Shown: in pieces, positions 2,527 through 38,628 of the stretch
Numbering within the stretch: position 1 is the first letter of the stretch
Layout of the letters: each line of letters begins with the position of its first letter
Origin: Capnocytophaga sp. oral taxon 338 str. F0234
GTDB taxonomy: Bacteria > Bacteroidota > Bacteroidia > Flavobacteriales > Flavobacteriaceae
Length of the DNA stretch: 64,000 nt
NCBI RefSeq assembly: GCF_000192225.1
Contig: NZ_GL872413.1
Coordinates: 1,878,828-1,942,827, forward strand
Reading direction: 5' to 3'
The notes under the pieces: model-generated
What the model was told of the DNA's origin: nothing
Databases searched by the model: none
The model's input: the letters and a program-made list of their open reading frames with translations, nothing else
Translations under genes and position numbers: made by a program

Positions 2527-4044
2527 ATGGAACAATATTCAATCTCCTTTGATGAATTTATAGGGATTCTTTTTAACCATAAAAAAGTGGAAATTTCTCA
2601 TAAAACAGAAAAAATCATAATAGACAGTTATAATTTCCTGAAAGATTTTTCTAAAAATAAAGTTATTTATGGAGTAAATACAGGTTTTGGACCTATGGCT
2701 CAATATAGAATTGAAGAAAAAGATCAATTAGCCTTACAATACAATATCATCCATAGTCATTCTTCTGGAATGGGAACATATTTTTCTCCCGAGATAGTAA
2801 GATCAGCTATTCTATGCAGATTAAATACACTATCGTTAGGAAAATCAGGTGTCCATATCTCCCTTATCCATCTTATGAAGGAACTTATTAATAGAGATAT
2901 TACTCCTTTAATATTTCAGCATGGAAGTGTAGGAGCTAGTGGTGATTTAGTCCAATTAGCTCACTTAGCCTTAGTACTTATTGGAGAGGGAGAGGTTTTC
3001 TATAAAGGAAAAAGACGTTCCACAAAAGAGGTTTTCAAAGAGGAAGGACTTAAACCTCTGCAAATTCACTTACGTGAAGGCATTGCTCTGATGAATGGTA
3101 CCTCCGTCATGACAGGAATTGCTGTTATTAATGTCCATTATGCTTCTCTTCTTTTGGAATGGTCTATTAAACTCTCCATTGCTATAAATGAACTGGTTCA
3201 AACCTATGATGATCATTTTTCAAAAGAACTCAATGCTGCTAAAAAACATCACGGACAGCAAGTTATTGCCCTGAAAATGCGTAATTACCTCTCTGATAGC
3301 CTTCTTACCAGAAAACGATCTGAACATCTTTATACAGGAGAACATAAGGAATCTGTATTCAAGGATAAAGTTCAAGAATATTATTCCTTGCGCTGTCTCC
3401 CTCAAATATTAGGAGCAATCTATGATACTATTTGTTCCGCTAAGGAAGTTGTAACTAATGAATTTAACTCAGCTAGTGATAATCCTATTGTTGATTTAGA
3501 AACACAACAAGTATATCATGGAGGAAACTTTCATGGTGATTATATTTCCTTAGAAATGGATAAACTAAAATTAGCTATCACTCGCCTTAGTATGCTTAGT
3601 GAAAGACAATTAAATTACCTACTTAATCCTAAAATTAATGAAATTCTTCCTGCTTTTGTTAATGCAGGGAAATTAGGGTTTAACTTTGGTATGCAGGGGA
3701 TACAATTCACAGCTACCTCCACTACTGCTGAAAATCAAACTCTTTCAAATTCCATGTATGTACATAGCATCCCTAACAATAATGATAATCAGGATATTGT
3801 AAGTATGGGTACCAATGCAGCTACTATTACCCATAAGGTGATTGAAAATACTTTTGAAGTATTGGCTATAGAAGCCATTACTATAGCACAAGCGATTGAT
3901 ATCTTGGAAAATAAAGAAAAATTTTCAACCACTACCCAAAAGTGGTATCAAGAAATACGTAAAATCATTCCTTTCTTCTCGGAAGATATTACCCCGTATC
4001 CCTTTTTGGAAAAAGTGAAAACATTTTTAAAGTCTAATTCTTAA
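2527..4044 (+). CDS. Aromatic amino acid ammonia-lyase, probably tyrosine ammonia-lyase
   Basis: 505 residues of the HAL/PAL/TAL family, which eliminates ammonia from His, Phe or Tyr using an MIO group formed autocatalytically from Ala-Ser-Gly. The MIO triad is Ala137-Ser138-Gly139 in GASGDLVQLAHLALV; the conserved catalytic Tyr48 sits in YGVNTGFGPM. The sequence agrees closely along its length with what I recall of the characterised Flavobacterium johnsoniae tyrosine ammonia-lyase (FSKNKVIYGVNTGFGP, YHGGNFHGDYISLEMDKLK, HSIPNNNDNQDIVSMGTN). I therefore favour TAL, giving 4-coumarate as starter of flexirubin/aryl polyene pigments, over histidase. No hut genes and no aryl-polyene cluster are nearby. 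lnt begins 19 bases after its stop, so they may be cotranscribed. The HSHSSG loop is shared with histidases, so substrate is not proven. Confidence 0.85.
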   Translation: MEQYSISFDEFIGILFNHKKVEISHKTEKIIIDSYNFLKDFSKNKVIYGVNTGFGPMAQYRIEEKDQLALQYNIIHSHSSGMGTYFSPEIVRSAILCRLNTLSLGKSGVHISLIHLMKELINRDITPLIFQHGSVGASGDLVQLAHLALVLIGEGEVFYKGKRRSTKEVFKEEGLKPLQIHLREGIALMNGTSVMTGIAVINVHYASLLLEWSIKLSIAINELVQTYDDHFSKELNAAKKHHGQQVIALKMRNYLSDSLLTRKRSEHLYTGEHKESVFKDKVQEYYSLRCLPQILGAIYDTICSAKEVVTNEFNSASDNPIVDLETQQVYHGGNFHGDYISLEMDKLKLAITRLSMLSERQLNYLLNPKINEILPAFVNAGKLGFNFGMQGIQFTATSTTAENQTLSNSMYVHSIPNNNDNQDIVSMGTNAATITHKVIENTFEVLAIEAITIAQAIDILENKEKFSTTTQKWYQEIRKIIPFFSEDITPYPFLEKVKTFLKSNS

Positions 4045-4063
4045 GTTGTCTATATATTCTATA

Positions 4064-5653
4064 ATGAAAAATTTACTTTTGGCATTTCTCTCAGGAATTC
4101 TATTGGCTGTAGCTTGGCCTACTTATGGGTTTTCTCCTTTTATCTTTATAGCTTTTGTTCCATTACTCTTAATGGAATACCAGCTACGTTCTACAGGGAA
4201 ATCTTGTAAAGGCAAAGTTCTCTTACTTTCCTATCTTAGTTTCTTTATTTGGAATACTATCACAACTTGGTGGATATGGAATTCAACAGAATTAGGGGCT
4301 GGATTTGCTATTTTGGTTAATAGCCTTTTGATGTCTTTAGTTTTCCTTCTTTATCATTTAGTCGCTAAAAGGAATACTTTCAAAATTAGTAGTATCTTCT
4401 TTATAACAATCTGGATAGCTTTTGAAAAATTTCATCATCATTGGGATTTCTCTTGGCCTTGGCTCACCTTAGGAAATGTATTTTCAGAAAATATCGTCTG
4501 GATACAATGGTATGAATATACCGGTATATTTGGAGGAAGTCTTTGGATATTATTAGTAAATATACTGACATTCTATACCCTCCTATCTTTTATAAAAATC
4601 AGAGATAAAATTCTACTTTATAGAAGAATTTGTGGAATAGGATTAACTATCATTATACCAATAAGTTGCTCATTGTGGATATATACCTATTACAAAGAGG
4701 AAGGAAAACCTGTAGAGATAGTCGTATTGCAACCTAATATAGATCCTTATTCTGAAAAATATACACTTTCCAATAGAGAAACTATAACCCTTTTGCTTAG
4801 ACTTACTCAAGAAGAAATTAGCAAAAACACTCATTTTGTATTCACTCCAGAGACAGTAATATCTCAAGAAGTCAATAACCTAAATGATATTTTTGATAGT
4901 AAGGAAACCGATTCTTTCAGATCTTTCTTAAAAAGATATCCCCAATTGAACTGGGTAATAGGTGTTTCTATTTTTCAAGTAATTAATGACAAAGATAAGA
5001 TTACCCCACAAAGCAATTACAATCCCTACCAAGATTATTGGTTCAATGATTATAATAGTGCATTCCTACTTAATAGTTCTAAGGAAATAAATTTTTATCA
5101 CAAATCTAAATTGGTAGTAGGAGTAGAAAATATGCCTTTTCAATCCATCCTAAAGCCTATTTTAGGAGATATAATGATAGATTTAGGAGGAACTGTAGCG
5201 GTGAAAACTACCCAGAAAATGCCTACCGTTTTTATATCAAAAGAAGGAGAAAAAGTGGCTCCTGTTATTTGCTATGAATCCGTTTATGGAGAATATATAA
5301 CTAAGTATGTAAAACAAGGAGCTCAATTACTAGGAGTACTTACCAATGATGCTTGGTGGGGAAATACTCAAGGACATAAGCAATTACTCAGTTATACACG
5401 TCTCAGAGCAATCGAAACGCGTAAAAGCATTGCTCGGAGTGCTAATACAGGTACTTCAGCATTCATTAACCAACGTGGTAATATCATAAAACAATTGGCA
5501 TACAAAAAGCAAGGAAGCCTAAGAGAGACTATCCTTGCCAATGACAAAATTACCGTTTATGTTCGTTACGGAGATTATATAGCACGCATCAGTGCTTTTA
5601 TAGGATTAGGAATTCTACTCACTTCTTTTCTTAAAAAACGAAGCGAAGTATAA
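4064..5653 (+). CDS. lnt: Apolipoprotein N-acyltransferase
   Basis: 529 residues from the ATG at 4064 (an in-frame TTG at 4046 is less likely). The N-terminal half has at least six hydrophobic segments; the C-terminal half is a nitrilase-like domain facing the periplasm. The expected triad is visible: Glu263 in FTPETVIS, Lys347 in FYHKSKLV, Cys403 in PVICYESVYG. Lnt adds the third acyl chain to the N-terminal cysteine of lipoproteins after Lgt and LspA. It ends one base before the stop of the convergent DUF2807 gene. Lipoprotein maturation matters here because several genes in this window (24117, 26020, 32794, and three DKNYY genes) encode lipoproteins. Confidence 0.93.
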   Translation: MKNLLLAFLSGILLAVAWPTYGFSPFIFIAFVPLLLMEYQLRSTGKSCKGKVLLLSYLSFFIWNTITTWWIWNSTELGAGFAILVNSLLMSLVFLLYHLVAKRNTFKISSIFFITIWIAFEKFHHHWDFSWPWLTLGNVFSENIVWIQWYEYTGIFGGSLWILLVNILTFYTLLSFIKIRDKILLYRRICGIGLTIIIPISCSLWIYTYYKEEGKPVEIVVLQPNIDPYSEKYTLSNRETITLLLRLTQEEISKNTHFVFTPETVISQEVNNLNDIFDSKETDSFRSFLKRYPQLNWVIGVSIFQVINDKDKITPQSNYNPYQDYWFNDYNSAFLLNSSKEINFYHKSKLVVGVENMPFQSILKPILGDIMIDLGGTVAVKTTQKMPTVFISKEGEKVAPVICYESVYGEYITKYVKQGAQLLGVLTNDAWWGNTQGHKQLLSYTRLRAIETRKSIARSANTGTSAFINQRGNIIKQLAYKKQGSLRETILANDKITVYVRYGDYIARISAFIGLGILLTSFLKKRSEV

Positions 5654-34114: not shown

Positions 34115-34735
34115 TTATACCATCACTTTTTCTTTCAGATAGCCAAGTGCATGATTCCCTTCATGAAAAAGCAAATCCAAGGTACTAAGATTCCCTATAA
34201 ATCCATGCTTATCTGAAAATATTTGATAATAAGCATCTTGCTTTATATCATGCACTATTTTCGCGTGGGAAAGATAACGAAAATCATTTGTTTGCTGATA
34301 AACCTTTTTATATTCTGTAGTTTTTTCCCAGTCCAACTGTACATGTAAACAGTCTAAAATTACCTCCATAGTTCTAAAGTTCAAATCTAATAAAAAAGTA
34401 TACTTTTCTTCAAATATGGGTGCTATTCTATCTTCATAATATTCAAAATAGGGAGAAGTACGATAAGCTGTTTGCAGAGTTTTCCAATGCAATTTCTGCC
34501 AAGTTACACCATTATCTATCTGTACATCCTTATAGAGTTGCCTACCTGTTTCTCCTCCTGTATGTAAGATAGGAACTGTAAGAATTTGTTTGCCATTTGC
34601 CCCATAGATATAGGTACGATTACGGAAAGTTTGCTTTTGATAATTATCGGAAACCTCTAAAAGACAAGAGGTCTTAACTAGAATAGAAAATAAGGCAATA
34701 GAAGGAAAATAGGTAGGATGTAATAATGAGGTCAT
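34115..34735 (-). CDS. WbqC-like family protein
   Basis: 206 residues. LLHPTYFPSIALF at the start and RTYIYGANGKQILTVPILHTG, WQKLHWKTLQTAYRTSPYFEYY mark the WbqC family. Members occur in O-antigen clusters and as single genes throughout Bacteroidota; the reaction is not firmly known. It starts 3 bases after the stop of the nuclease-methyltransferase gene and is the last gene of the lepB operon. Confidence 0.88.
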   Translation of the reverse strand: MTSLLHPTYFPSIALFSILVKTSCLLEVSDNYQKQTFRNRTYIYGANGKQILTVPILHTGGETGRQLYKDVQIDNGVTWQKLHWKTLQTAYRTSPYFEYYEDRIAPIFEEKYTFLLDLNFRTMEVILDCLHVQLDWEKTTEYKKVYQQTNDFRYLSHAKIVHDIKQDAYYQIFSDKHGFIGNLSTLDLLFHEGNHALGYLKEKVMV

Positions 34736-34738
34736 TTT

Positions 34739-36976
34739 TTAAAAATTAAAAGAGAGTTGTCCTGTTTGTTTGAGTCGCCATTTATTCGTTTCATATTCTT
34801 CCGCAACAGTTATCAGAACATTTATAATTGTTTGTTTCTCAGGAGTAATGCCATTTTTAAGTAAAGGTATGATATCCAAGATAATATCATCTGTGGATGG
34901 GTATTCCTTATGAGATTCTTTCTCTTTAAGATAAGAGATCAAGAAATACTTAATTCGGAGATCTAAAGGAATTTTAGTCTTAAATTTCTGATTTTTACGG
35001 ATATAGAATTTTTTTGTTGAGGGCTCATAATCAAATTCTGCTTTGAGTAAAGGAGTAAGATCTTTGTATTCCTTACTTAATATATGTAGAAACCCGAATT
35101 GTAATCCTTTGATAATAAGCTCATCATTTATTTGTTCTAAGTTAGCTCCATCATTTGCAGCAATGACACTTTCAATCGTTTCTATCACTAAATCATAAAT
35201 ATCATTCCCTAACTTAAACTTTTGTATAGCCTTAGGTGTTTCTTTTTTAATAAAGTTGATAATCAATTGTCCTGAAAGCACAGAAAAAGGATTTTGTCTT
35301 TTCTTAAAGCTAGTTTGTCCATTACTTTGCTTGACAGTGCCCACATATTCAAACCCACATTTCTCAGCTGCTTCAACAATGATATGCCAATAATGAGGAT
35401 CTTTGTGAGAGAATACAAAAGAAAGCCAACGGTCGAACTTCAATACGCGATACATTTCTTTGATAGATTGGCTCAATAGATCACTATATTCATCTTTGGT
35501 TTTATGTAAACTACCACCTTCTATGGCTTCCTCCTTGCGATCTTCTTCTGTAATAGGTAGATCCAGCCAAGCATTCCACATTACAGAAAGGTCAAGATAG
35601 GGAATCTTATCTCCATAAGGAGGATCTGTATATATATAATCTATACTTAAGTCCTCAATAGTGCTTAAGTGCGTAGCGGAACCCTTGATAATTTGTAAAT
35701 TATTTATAGTAGATTCATTAATGAGAGGAGCTATTTCTTTTTTTGCATCAAAAATTTTTTTAAATCGTAATTCAAAATAGGTTAAAATATCTATATCCAC
35801 GGGATCTTTGGCAATGCGATATCGATAATATTGAAATGCACTTGCATTCCCTCCACCTTCCTTTTTAACATAAGTAGATGTATGATAAGTCAAATTAGCT
35901 TTTGTTAAAAGCCCAGAAAACATTAATAAGAAAGTCTTTCGAATAGATTCATCTTTAATTTGTTTAATAAGATATTTCAAAAGACCAAGCTGAGCAAGTT
36001 GTTTATCAGAAAATAAAGCATCAACAGTAGACACATCTGCTCCTTTCATATTTATTTCGGTTATAGGATAAGAATATCTTTTCTTAGCTTTTTGGATTTC
36101 ATCATCTGTTACTGGATATTTTTTCTTAAACTTATCCATCAGATAAGAATACTCCTCTAATAAATTATCAAAATTCACTGGACAAGTAAGTGCTGATACT
36201 AAGAATATAGCCAATGGGTTAATATCTATATTAATTCCTTTCCTTCCAAGCATTATAGCTTCAATAGCTGTGACTCCAGATCCACCAAAAGGATCCAATA
36301 TGACATCATTAGGTTTAGTAAAATGTTTAATATATTGTTGCACAACATCCCAACTTTGTTTAGTGAAATACCCATGAACTCCAAAATGTCTCTTTGTTGC
36401 TCTTTTTCTAACCTTTAATAATGGTTTAGGTAAGGGCAAATCCACATAAGAAAAATGCTCGTATTTATTCGTAAGAGATTTTTCTATATTAATCTTTTTC
36501 TCTGTAAAGCGATCGGGGCTTAGTAAGTTTTCCATCACTTCCCAATGCTTATCAAACTCTGAAAGGGGAAAATAAAGTAATGGTTCTTTTCTATCTCGAT
36601 CAAAAGCAACAAACTCTCTGCCGTTACATAAAGCAAATATTTGTACATTAATATCAGGATGTATAGCGTATGAATATACCTGTTCTATATGCTCTCCTGA
36701 TAAAATATTCTCTGTAGGAGCCTTGGCATCCAACACCCAAGAGTAACGACCATCTACTTCCAACAAATAATCAGGGACTATATTAATAGGTCGTTTTTGT
36801 GAGCCTATTTTCACAAAAGGATGAGATAAAGTTTTGCTATAAATGATACGATTATGTCCATAAGCCTTATACCCTAATTCCTTTAGGATAGGATTAATCA
36901 GTTCCTCTCGTACTGCATCTTCTTTAAAATCAGGTGAATTAAGAAGTTCAAAATCAAAGTTGTCATATAAACTCAT
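34739..36976 (-). CDS. PD-(D/E)XK nuclease - DNA methyltransferase fusion, candidate one-gene restriction-modification enzyme
   Basis: 745 residues. Residues about 15-135 resemble the N-terminal nuclease domain of type I HsdR subunits, with the PD-(D/E)XK residues Asp69 (NIVPDYLLEV) and Asp83-Ala-Lys85 (WVLDAKAP). Residues about 195-260 hold SAM motif I (DVILDPFGGSGVTAIEA, Asp228). Catalytic motif IV is TDPPYGDKIPY (450-460), so an amino-methyltransferase with motif I before motif IV; the roughly 190 residues between could recognise the target. The last 200 residues resemble winged helices. No separate specificity or translocase gene is adjacent. It lies 11 bases after lepB and 3 before wbqC. 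Expected role: modifies the host site and cuts unmodified DNA. It could also be a regulatory methyltransferase with a degenerate nuclease. Confidence 0.75.
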   Translation of the reverse strand: MSLYDNFDFELLNSPDFKEDAVREELINPILKELGYKAYGHNRIIYSKTLSHPFVKIGSQKRPINIVPDYLLEVDGRYSWVLDAKAPTENILSGEHIEQVYSYAIHPDINVQIFALCNGREFVAFDRDRKEPLLYFPLSEFDKHWEVMENLLSPDRFTEKKINIEKSLTNKYEHFSYVDLPLPKPLLKVRKRATKRHFGVHGYFTKQSWDVVQQYIKHFTKPNDVILDPFGGSGVTAIEAIMLGRKGINIDINPLAIFLVSALTCPVNFDNLLEEYSYLMDKFKKKYPVTDDEIQKAKKRYSYPITEINMKGADVSTVDALFSDKQLAQLGLLKYLIKQIKDESIRKTFLLMFSGLLTKANLTYHTSTYVKKEGGGNASAFQYYRYRIAKDPVDIDILTYFELRFKKIFDAKKEIAPLINESTINNLQIIKGSATHLSTIEDLSIDYIYTDPPYGDKIPYLDLSVMWNAWLDLPITEEDRKEEAIEGGSLHKTKDEYSDLLSQSIKEMYRVLKFDRWLSFVFSHKDPHYWHIIVEAAEKCGFEYVGTVKQSNGQTSFKKRQNPFSVLSGQLIINFIKKETPKAIQKFKLGNDIYDLVIETIESVIAANDGANLEQINDELIIKGLQFGFLHILSKEYKDLTPLLKAEFDYEPSTKKFYIRKNQKFKTKIPLDLRIKYFLISYLKEKESHKEYPSTDDIILDIIPLLKNGITPEKQTIINVLITVAEEYETNKWRLKQTGQLSFNF

Positions 36977-36987
36977 TTGTAAGAGTG

Positions 36988-38628
36988 TTATTTCTTAATC
37001 TTAGTTTTTCCTTTACGCCTTTTTCTATACACCTCATAACCAATGTAACTCAAAATACCTATTCCCAATACCCAATAAAGATAAGAGACAGGTTCTCCTT
37101 CTCCATTAACAGTAGTAAAGAGTCTGTTCCAACGAATTTTGTTAAAACCAGAGGCATTGCTATCCCAGCTCATCCAGATAAGTACAGGTTTACCTACAAT
37201 ATGATCAAAAGGCACAAAGCCCCAATAGCGGCTATCCTCAGAGTTATGTCGATTGTCACCCATCATCCAATAATAATCCTGAAGGAAAGTATAAGTGGTC
37301 GCCTTATGTCCATTTACATATATATCATTCCCTTTTACTTCCAATTTATTTCCTTCATACTCTGTAATAATACGCTTATACAAAGGTAAATTCTCTACAG
37401 AAAGTTGTATTGTTTTACCTTGTGCAGGAATCTCCACAGGACCAAAATTATCTTCACTCCAAGCAAAGTTCTTACTGTGAGGAAAAATAGCTGGATTATA
37501 TTCCTTAGGAGTTAGAATTTTAGTTACACTTTCTACATGAGGTAATTGACGTATCTTTTCTGCTACTTCCTCAGTAGCGGATTGAACAAGGAACTCTGTT
37601 TTATCTCTGAAGATAGAAGCATCTGTGATTCCAAAGTTCTGAAACAGAAAAACTGGAAGCAACTGTTCTGCTGTATATTGCCCTCCATAGAGTCCCATAA
37701 GATAACCTTCAAACTGAGGAGAGACGTGTACACTATAGGAAGTTTGTAACTTAGCCCTTACAGGATAACGTTCTTTGTTTCCATTGATAAAAACCTCTCC
37801 ATCACGTATCTCTAACTTATCTCCAGCTATAGCCACTGCTCTTTTCACGTAGTGTGATTTCTTATCCACAGGCTTATAAGCATAAATTCCTGAAGGATCA
37901 CGAAAGAAACGCACAGTATCCACAGGCCAGTTAAATACCACAATATCATTACGTTTTACTTTCTCAAGAGCCGGTAAACGCAAATAAGGCAATTGAAAAT
38001 GAGACAAATATGATTTAATTCCTACTAGAGGTAAAGTATCATGTACCATAGGAGTAGAGAGAGGTGTCATTGGAAGACGTGCCCCATAATGAAACTTACT
38101 CACAAAAAGGAAATCCCCCACCAAAAGGGTTTTTTCCAAAGAGGAAGTAGGGATTGTATAAGGTTGAATAAAGTAGGTATGAATGGCAGATGCAGCTACC
38201 ACAGCATAAATAATTCCATTGAGCCATGAGGGAACATTCTCTGCAATAATTGCTTCATTTTTTCCTACATATTGAGTCTTAGGTTGGTAAGTTATATATC
38301 CCAAATAAAGTCCTAACGTAAATATAGCTATAAGTGTATAACGCTTTTTGCGATAGCCAAAAACATGCAGCCACTCATACGCCAATACTATTGCCATAAT
38401 ATTCCCTATCACAGGCAGATATACTAAGAATATCCACCACCAAGGACGTTGAATAATCTTAAAAAGAATAAGCATATTCCATACAGGGACAAAAGCTTGC
38501 CAGCCCTTATATCCTGCTTTCTGGTAACCTTTCCATAGAAGGATCCCCTGTAGGAGTTGAACTCCTAAAAAAACAATAAGATAAGTTAACATAGATAATT
38601 GCGATAATTCTGTTATCAAATAATCCAA
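36988..38628 (-). CDS. lepB: Signal peptidase I
   Basis: 546 residues, long as in other Bacteroidota. The N-terminal 120 residues hold several membrane segments (DUF5684-like: GWQAFVPVWNMLILFKII). The peptidase S26 domain has the catalytic Ser in YTIPTSSLEKTLLVGDFLFV and the general-base Lys in KSHYVKRAVAIAGDKLEI. A large insertion of about 130 residues separates these from the MMGDNRHNSEDSRYWGFVP box. One more membrane segment and a Lys/Arg-rich tail end the protein. It cleaves signal peptides of exported proteins. TATCTTTG on the minus strand (about 38656-38663) is the promoter. First gene of the lepB - nuclease/methyltransferase - wbqC operon. Confidence 0.94.
   Translation of the reverse strand: MDYLITELSQLSMLTYLIVFLGVQLLQGILLWKGYQKAGYKGWQAFVPVWNMLILFKIIQRPWWWIFLVYLPVIGNIMAIVLAYEWLHVFGYRKKRYTLIAIFTLGLYLGYITYQPKTQYVGKNEAIIAENVPSWLNGIIYAVVAASAIHTYFIQPYTIPTSSLEKTLLVGDFLFVSKFHYGARLPMTPLSTPMVHDTLPLVGIKSYLSHFQLPYLRLPALEKVKRNDIVVFNWPVDTVRFFRDPSGIYAYKPVDKKSHYVKRAVAIAGDKLEIRDGEVFINGNKERYPVRAKLQTSYSVHVSPQFEGYLMGLYGGQYTAEQLLPVFLFQNFGITDASIFRDKTEFLVQSATEEVAEKIRQLPHVESVTKILTPKEYNPAIFPHSKNFAWSEDNFGPVEIPAQGKTIQLSVENLPLYKRIITEYEGNKLEVKGNDIYVNGHKATTYTFLQDYYWMMGDNRHNSEDSRYWGFVPFDHIVGKPVLIWMSWDSNASGFNKIRWNRLFTTVNGEGEPVSYLYWVLGIGILSYIGYEVYRKRRKGKTKIKK

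What the first reader, a model, noticed from the sequence alone, without database searches (positions are those of the whole stretch)
34739..36976. Single-chain nuclease-methyltransferase fused in one gene and inserted in the lepB-wbqC operon
Seen: an N-terminal PD-(D/E)XK core (Asp69, Asp83-Ala-Lys85) resembling HsdR_N, SAM motif I at 228 and the catalytic DPPY at 451, with about 190 residues between and a 200-residue winged-helix-like tail. Known: in related flavobacteria lepB and wbqC are usually adjacent. Inference: a one-gene restriction-modification (type IIG-like, but with an HsdR-type nuclease and motif I before motif IV), acquired by insertion so neat that it left 11- and 3-base gaps. 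No S subunit or helicase is adjacent, so specificity must be internal. This is the best candidate for an undescribed defence system here.
Basis: partly seen in the sequence, partly recalled or inferred. Interest (0 to 1): 0.68.

Follow-up and report, generated by a model that had tools for sequence, protein, structure and literature searches.

The report
Single-gene restriction-modification enzyme, unusual layout
One bacterial gene appears to encode a complete defence enzyme that marks the cell's own DNA and cuts unmarked DNA, built from a known type of cutter joined to a different class of marking enzyme than is usual, with its DNA-reading part in the middle, where relatives appear to swap it.

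Summary
The 745-aa ORF at 34739-36976 (-) is real and intact, one of 62 distinct (near) full-length proteins found here, labelled as 13 phyla. All keep the nuclease residues D69, D/E83, K85 and QxxxY, SAM motif I and DPPY. No partner gene recurs. In the genus it is accessory: 2 of 20 genomes, at two sites; lepB and wbqC lie under 100 nt apart in 15 of the 19 other genomes. Strongest evidence: residues 321-430, between motif I and DPPY, are exchanged independently of the rest. 23 of 62 sequences are discordant there, against 0-7 for non-overlapping blocks and 0-3 for 200 variability-matched column sets. That is the expected signature of a swappable target-recognition domain. Best reading: a self-sufficient single-chain restriction-modification enzyme ordered nuclease, motif I, TRD, DPPY, C-terminal domain. 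It differs from Type IIG as reviewed (gamma-class NPPY, specificity module C-terminal or separate) and from BtgZI (methylase first). New variant of a known kind; activity untested.

The parts
34739..36976 (-). Complete 745-aa nuclease-methyltransferase gene
   Evidence: 61 further distinct co-linear homologues aligned over more than 680 residues
36482..36976 (-). Residues 1-165: PD-(D/E)xK nuclease domain, HsdR_N / Type IIG-like, with QxxxY motif
   Evidence: HSDR_N 27.0 bits against a 25.1 cut-off; PADLOC REase_MTase_IIG in 30 of 36 domain sequences; invariant residues
36770..36772 (-). D69 (of P68-D69), metal ligand of the nuclease site (inferred)
   Evidence: identical in 65 of 65 rows
36722..36730 (-). 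D83-A84-K85, (D/E)xK of the nuclease site
   Evidence: K85 in 65 of 65; position 83 D in 61 and E in 4 of 65
36668..36682 (-). Q99xxxY103 motif
   Evidence: identical in 65 of 65 rows
36203..36316 (-). Residues 221-258: SAM-binding motif I (DPFGGSG) and following strand/helix
35687..36016 (-). Residues 321-430: embedded target-recognition domain (inferred from exchange)
   Evidence: independent exchange in 23 of 62 sequences; other non-overlapping blocks 0-7; 200 variability-matched column sets 0-3; profiles of close pairs
35777..35956 (-). Residues 341-400: core of the exchanged block
   Evidence: 60-residue windows starting at 321, 341 and 361 give 29, 35 and 32 of 62; every other 60-residue window tested gives 0-8
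35222..35656 (-). Residues 441-585: catalytic half of the methyltransferase, including motif IV
   Evidence: mean pairwise identity 0.80, the most conserved part; fold match over 182-578
35615..35626 (-). D451-P452-P453-Y454, catalytic motif IV
   Evidence: identical in 65 of 65 rows
34742..35221 (-). Residues 586-745: conserved mostly helical C-terminal domain of unknown role
   Evidence: predicted secondary structure; mean pairwise identity 0.63
36988..38628 (-). lepB, upstream flank of the insertion
   Evidence: name from the finding and recalled
34115..34735 (-). wbqC-like gene, downstream flank of the insertion
   Evidence: name from the finding and recalled

Best explanation
A self-sufficient single-chain restriction-modification enzyme. 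The middle block (321-430, core 341-400) reads a short DNA sequence. The methyltransferase, formed by motif I (221-258) and the DPPY half (441-585) folding together around that block, methylates an amino group in it, probably adenine N6. The N-terminal PD-(D/E)xK domain cuts DNA carrying the unmethylated site, probably after two molecules meet and at a short distance from the site. Because one recognition domain serves both activities, exchanging it changes cutting and protection together, which explains the swapping. Shown by sequence: intact active-site motifs, domain order, module exchange, no recurrent partner, patchy presence. Inferred: methylation, cleavage, target, dimerisation, phage defence.
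For: Both sets of catalytic residues are kept in all 65 aligned rows (62 distinct). The nuclease domain matches HSDR_N above its cut-off and a Type IIG nuclease-methylase model in 30 of 36 sequences. The methylase region matches N6_N4_Mtase, Type II methyltransferase models and PglXI, with a methyltransferase fold over 182-578 (best Z 17.9, rmsd 2.8, 174 aligned). Block 321-430 is exchanged: 23 of 62 sequences discordant, 0-9 in the 12 other blocks and 0-7 in those that do not overlap it. 200 sets of 110 columns from elsewhere, matched for variability, gave 0-3 (mean 0.4), and 60-residue windows peak at 341-400 with 35 of 62. The clearest pair, L070/L080, is 95% identical outside and 45% inside, and L080's nearest block partner is a Treponema sequence. 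No gene family recurs beside it in more than 8 of 72 loci, and the neighbours listed for 44 loci are varied. Accessory in the genus: 2 of 20 genomes, different sites. Phylum labels need 16 changes on the tree where 12 is the least possible.
Against: No activity data. The nuclease domain predicted alone is low confidence (pLDDT 52) and its best fold matches are weak (Foldseek E 0.014 or worse; VIA Z at most 5.3), though many rows are PD-(D/E)xK nucleases (fold assignment recalled) and some are unrelated. Whole-model pTM is 0.61 and the 10-residue blocks 361-390 have mean pLDDT 53-74. Lone nuclease-domain genes and lone methylase genes exist, so the halves can work in other contexts. The C-terminal block 631-740 also shows some discordance (7 of 62), so it could share in specificity. 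Block 376-485, which overlaps half of 321-430, gave 0. Very short windows are noisy: 161-180 gave 21. Many homologues are from metagenome bins, where assembly chimaeras and misbinned contigs could mimic exchange or wide distribution in individual cases. Phylum labels remain clustered on the tree (shuffled mean 30.0 changes against 16).
Confidence: 0.8

Rival explanations
1. A methyltransferase that works mainly as an epigenetic or BREX-like marker, with the nuclease domain retained as a DNA-binding or regulatory module that does not restrict.
For: The methylase half resembles PglXI (6.5e-43) and the DUF1156 antiphage model (far below cut-off). MTase-only relatives occur, e.g. in Thiospirochaeta plasmid pSpe.
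Against: The nuclease catalytic residues are identical, or D/E at position 83, in all 65 rows, which a mere binding module would not need. No gene family recurs beside it in more than 8 of 72 loci.
Confidence: 0.1
2. A Type IV-like or phage-marking enzyme: the nuclease attacks DNA that the protein itself or another enzyme has methylated.
For: Some R-M-like systems may use methylation as a mark for attack: a proposed but unproven model for Pgl, seen in a passage of PMC12839542. The C-terminal domain has no assigned role.
Against: A methylase in the same chain would modify the host's own sites and make such a nuclease suicidal without extra control (inference). No recurrent neighbour that could be a regulator was found among ORFs of 80 aa or more.
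Confidence: 0.05
3. An ATP-free degenerate Type I relative that needs other subunits encoded elsewhere in the genome.
For: HsdR_N match. A 531-aa frame with a methylase-like match lies at G000:C1:372141; that it is HsdM is recalled, not tested.
Against: No S-subunit or helicase match in the protein. The family occurs in unrelated hosts without a recurrent neighbour and carries its own exchanged block.
Confidence: 0.05

Closest known systems
Type IIG/IIC single-chain R-M enzymes (Eco57I, MmeI/Type IIL, BpuSI)
   Same: N-terminal PD-(D/E)xK nuclease (PADLOC REase_MTase_IIG matches 30 of 36 domain sequences; weak MmeI_N match below cut-off; BpuSI is the top, weak, structural row), methylase in the same chain, one recognition domain for both activities (inferred here).
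   Different: Described as gamma-class NPPY methylases with the specificity module at the C-terminus or separate (passages of PMC4081073, PMC3874165). Here DPPY, recognition block between motif I and IV, and only 745 aa against 919 (MmeI) and 997 (Eco57I).
BtgZI
   Same: Named in PMC4081073 (passage) as a Type IIC enzyme with an alpha-class methylase.
   Different: Methylase N-terminal and nuclease C-terminal with Q in place of E in the active site; here the nuclease is N-terminal with D/E-x-K.
Type II methyltransferase model PDLC03319 (503 aa) and MTase-only relatives such as L146 and Thiospirochaeta WP_246745129.1
   Same: Same methylase lineage and order; L146 matches the model at 2e-62, Thiospirochaeta at 1.4e-53, the window protein at 4.9e-33.
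   Different: No nuclease match listed for these two proteins; the Thiospirochaeta one has an N-terminal helix-turn-helix instead.
PglXI / BREX type 3 methylase
   Same: Distant relative of the catalytic half (6.5e-43).
   Different: 919-aa model from a multi-gene system (passage of PMC12839542); its members were not examined here.
REBASE 'Type IIG subtype alpha' proteins such as HVO_A0079
   Same: Annotated as single-chain Type IIG with alpha order (passage of PMC5867850).
   Different: 1088-1185 aa, NPPY and an Eco57I Pfam domain; that paper found no significant similarity in their N-terminal region.

Membership tests
Type IIC (combined R-M) | Nuclease and methylase activities in one protein | not testable with these tools
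   Both domains with intact motifs are in one chain; activities need biochemistry
Type IIG as described in PMC4081073/PMC3874165 | N-terminal PD-(D/E)xK nuclease domain | tested here: met
   motifs invariant, HSDR_N above cut-off for the domain alone, IIG model in 30 of 36; isolated-domain fold searches weak
Type IIG as described in PMC4081073/PMC3874165 | Gamma-class NPPY/F/W methylase | tested here: not met
   DPPY in 65 of 65 rows
Type IIG as described in PMC4081073/PMC3874165 | Specificity module at the C-terminus or as a separate subunit | tested here: not met
   exchanged block lies at 321-430 between motif I and IV; a contribution of the C-terminal domain is not excluded (block 631-740: 7 of 62)
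Type IIG | SAM-stimulated cleavage at a fixed distance from the site | not testable with these tools
   needs purified enzyme
[quoted passage not shown]
   motif I 228-234, exchanged block 321-430, DPPY 451; definition from a passage of PMC5867850. The order is met; descent from Dam-like alpha enzymes is not shown
BtgZI-like | Methylase first, nuclease last | tested here: not met
   nuclease at residues 1-165
Type I R-M | Helicase/translocase in the nuclease subunit | tested here: not met
   no helicase match in the protein in Pfam up to E 10; subunits elsewhere in the genome were not searched
BREX | Core BrxC ATPase and PglZ beside the methylase | tested here: not met
   direct flanks in the window are lepB and wbqC; no gene family recurs in more than 8 of 72 loci; remote copies in the genome were not searched

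The most novel reading that the evidence does not exclude
A separate, widely transferred subclass of single-chain restriction-modification enzymes in which a Type IIG/HsdR-type nuclease was joined to a non-gamma DPPY methylase of the PDLC03319/PglXI lineage, with a naturally interchangeable recognition module embedded inside the methylase fold. It would be a compact (745 aa) second solution to coupled specificity change, independent of the MmeI and BcgI designs.
Probability: 0.6. Interest if true: 0.55.

Novelty: new variant of a known kind. Interest (0 to 1): 0.42.

Why it matters
If active, the family would be a compact one-gene R-M system whose target-reading block nature already swaps, so many specificities could be obtained by matching blocks to methylation motifs. 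It also suggests that a Type IIG-type nuclease can be paired with a methylase class outside the gamma group, a layout that the passages read of two reviews (PMC4081073, PMC3874165) do not describe.

Tried and rejected
Phage records: no match at 1e-10. Plasmids: 21 records, none covering 80% of the protein. Viral contigs: 3 full-length relatives confirmed out of 47 candidate stretches; not examined for viral origin.

The nuclease predicted alone without an alignment was poor; the Foldseek and VIA lists from it are used only as weak support. The PDB profile search of the nuclease domain gave four matches up to E 1: an aminotransferase at 0.0014, an McrBC-component fragment at 0.054, a kinase and a pleckstrin-homology protein; only the McrBC one is a plausible relative. 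No C-terminal fold was identified; that region was not predicted alone.

Composition: gene GC 32.2% against window 34.9%, uninformative. Literature: nine searches listed no title or abstract start that describes this domain layout. They cover only the held open-access library. Only passages of PMC4081073, PMC3874165, PMC4833311, PMC12839542, PMC5867850 and PMC3983042 were seen. REBASE was not available.

Rows dropped: three duplicate rows before the exchange tests and the tree; homologues aligned over 680 residues or fewer were left out of the 65-row set, for example L055 and the broken copies. A1 used 49 sequences, chosen from the full-length ones. The recognition motif was not predicted.

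Full report
The object. The ORF 34739-36976 (-) is 745 aa with an ATG start. The gaps are 11 bases to lepB and 3 bases to wbqC. The host is a Capnocytophaga by inference: the same-genus genome G015 carries a gene identical to that on the named record 'Capnocytophaga sp. isolate S12M_Sa_22' (L002 and L098), on a contig of the same length.

Site and distribution. In the genus the full-length gene is found in 2 of 20 genomes: G000, the window's genome, and G015 (86% identical). In G015 it sits elsewhere, between a gene that reads as aat and an arginase-like gene (names recalled from sequence). wbqC is in 20 of 20 genomes. Among the 19 others, lepB lies within 1.5 kb upstream of wbqC in 17: the gap is under 100 nt in 15, and 105 and 377 nt in two. 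Of the remaining two, G004 has three ORFs of 129, 149 and 290 aa between them, and G016 has no lepB within 1.5 kb. So the interval usually lacks the gene, and here it is a private insertion. In the phylum sample, 8 of 395 genomes, the window's own included, have a full-length copy and two more (G116, G377) have a split or partial copy. One scan of genome contigs gave 72 loci. The 62-row tree carries 13 phylum labels: Bacteroidota, Cyanobacteriota, Pseudomonadota, Spirochaetota, Elusimicrobiota, Fibrobacterota, Ignavibacteriota, Chlorobiota, Planctomycetota, Nitrospirota, Acidobacteriota, Campylobacterota and Omnitrophota. It needs 16 changes of label where 12 is the least possible and shuffling gives 30 on average, so several transfers are likely while labels are still clustered. 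Labels come from record titles, and many records are metagenome bins.

Anatomy. Residues 1-165 are a nuclease domain. D69, K85, Q99 and Y103 are identical in 65 of 65 rows, position 68 is P in 64, and position 83 is D in 61 and E in 4. The predicted topology is helix 19-34, strands 70-74 and 77-84, helix 95-105, strands 113-117 and 121-126. Scanned alone, the domain passes the HSDR_N cut-off (27.0 against 25.1 bits), and 18 of 36 domain sequences match HSDR_N at 0.01. 30 of 36 match the PADLOC model REase_MTase_IIG PDLC03604; in the first member the match covers model positions 22-138 of 1011. One of the 36 is a lone nuclease-domain protein (L029). A methylase spans roughly 185-580, with motif I DPFGGSG at 228-234 and DPPY at 451-454. 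In the second-look alignment the model range 182-578 matches SAM methyltransferases, best Z 17.9 with rmsd 2.8 over 174 residues. A mostly helical domain of about 160 residues follows.

Recognition block. Mean pairwise identity is 0.80 in 441-585, 0.46 in 259-315 and 0.51 in 316-440. In close pairs the drop is local. L070 and L080 are 75-100% identical in every 20-residue window outside 261-440, 50-80% in 261-320 and 40-65% in 321-440. In a test over 62 distinct sequences, for each 110-residue block I counted sequences whose best partner in the block beats, by more than 0.15 in block identity, the partner that is best elsewhere. Block 321-430 gives 23 of 62. The other twelve blocks give 0 (six blocks), 1, 2, 3, 3, 7 (block 631-740) and 9 (block 276-385, which overlaps it); block 376-485, which also overlaps it, gives 0. 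Because a variable block could pass the threshold more easily, I drew 200 sets of 110 columns outside 255-445 with the same mean column identity (0.51): they give 0-3, mean 0.4. A contiguous block of equal variability, 71-180, gives 3. Windows of 60 residues give 29, 35 and 32 of 62 when starting at 321, 341 and 361, and 0-8 at all other starts tested; very short windows are noisy (161-180 gives 21). This is what exchange of a target-recognition domain looks like, and such movement is documented for other R-M systems (passages of PMC3983042). It says that specificity is internal and sits in the alpha position (N-FGG-TRD-DPPY-C; passage of PMC5867850).

Partner genes. Clustering 632 ORFs of at least 80 aa from 72 loci shows no family beside the gene in more than 8 loci. 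That largest group reads as ABC ATPases (recalled) and lies at various distances. Not every locus carries full flanks, and shorter ORFs were not looked at. Among 44 loci whose neighbours were listed, these are diverse, several reading as housekeeping genes (names recalled). So the gene probably works alone. Lone versions of each half exist: 291-307-aa proteins with the nuclease domain and a shared second domain (L141, L142, L144), and 535-539-aa methylases (L143, L146).

Mechanism and comparison. The most likely mechanism is coupled methylation and cleavage directed by one embedded recognition block. DPPY makes adenine N6 the likelier product (recalled knowledge). The reviews seen in passages describe Type IIG as gamma-class NPPY enzymes with a C-terminal or separate S module (PMC4081073, PMC3874165), with BtgZI as a Type IIC exception of the opposite order. 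The window protein meets the nuclease feature and fails the gamma-class and S-module features. It works like a Type IIG/IIC enzyme but should not be filed as a Type IIG as so defined. REBASE is reported to label some 1088-1185-aa Type IIG proteins 'subtype alpha' (passage of PMC5867850), which tempers the novelty.

Limits. No activity, target or methylation product is known. The nuclease fold rests on motifs, profile matches and topology; fold searches of the isolated, low-confidence domain model were weak. REBASE and most subscription literature could not be searched.

Noticed in passing
Function unknown.
   Followed up: partly
L067:6001-8211, L060:6001-8217, L120: The gene lies directly after a ruvA-like gene (name recalled) in both an Endomicrobiellum (Elusimicrobiota) and Chromatium; in C. 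okenii LaCa (L120) the copy is broken into several frames. Recurrent insertion at ruvA or chance was not tested.
   Followed up: no
L094, L103, L105, L112, L120: Several homologues have broken reading frames, fitting gain and decay of an accessory gene (or assembly error).
   Followed up: no
L146:2302-3405 and 3417-5036: A lone methylase of the same lineage is followed by a 367-aa protein with no Pfam or PADLOC match at 0.001 that may be an unrecognised restriction endonuclease.
   Followed up: partly
IMG/VR contigs L148, L149, L150: Three putative viral contigs hold full-length relatives (53-56% identical).
   Followed up: no
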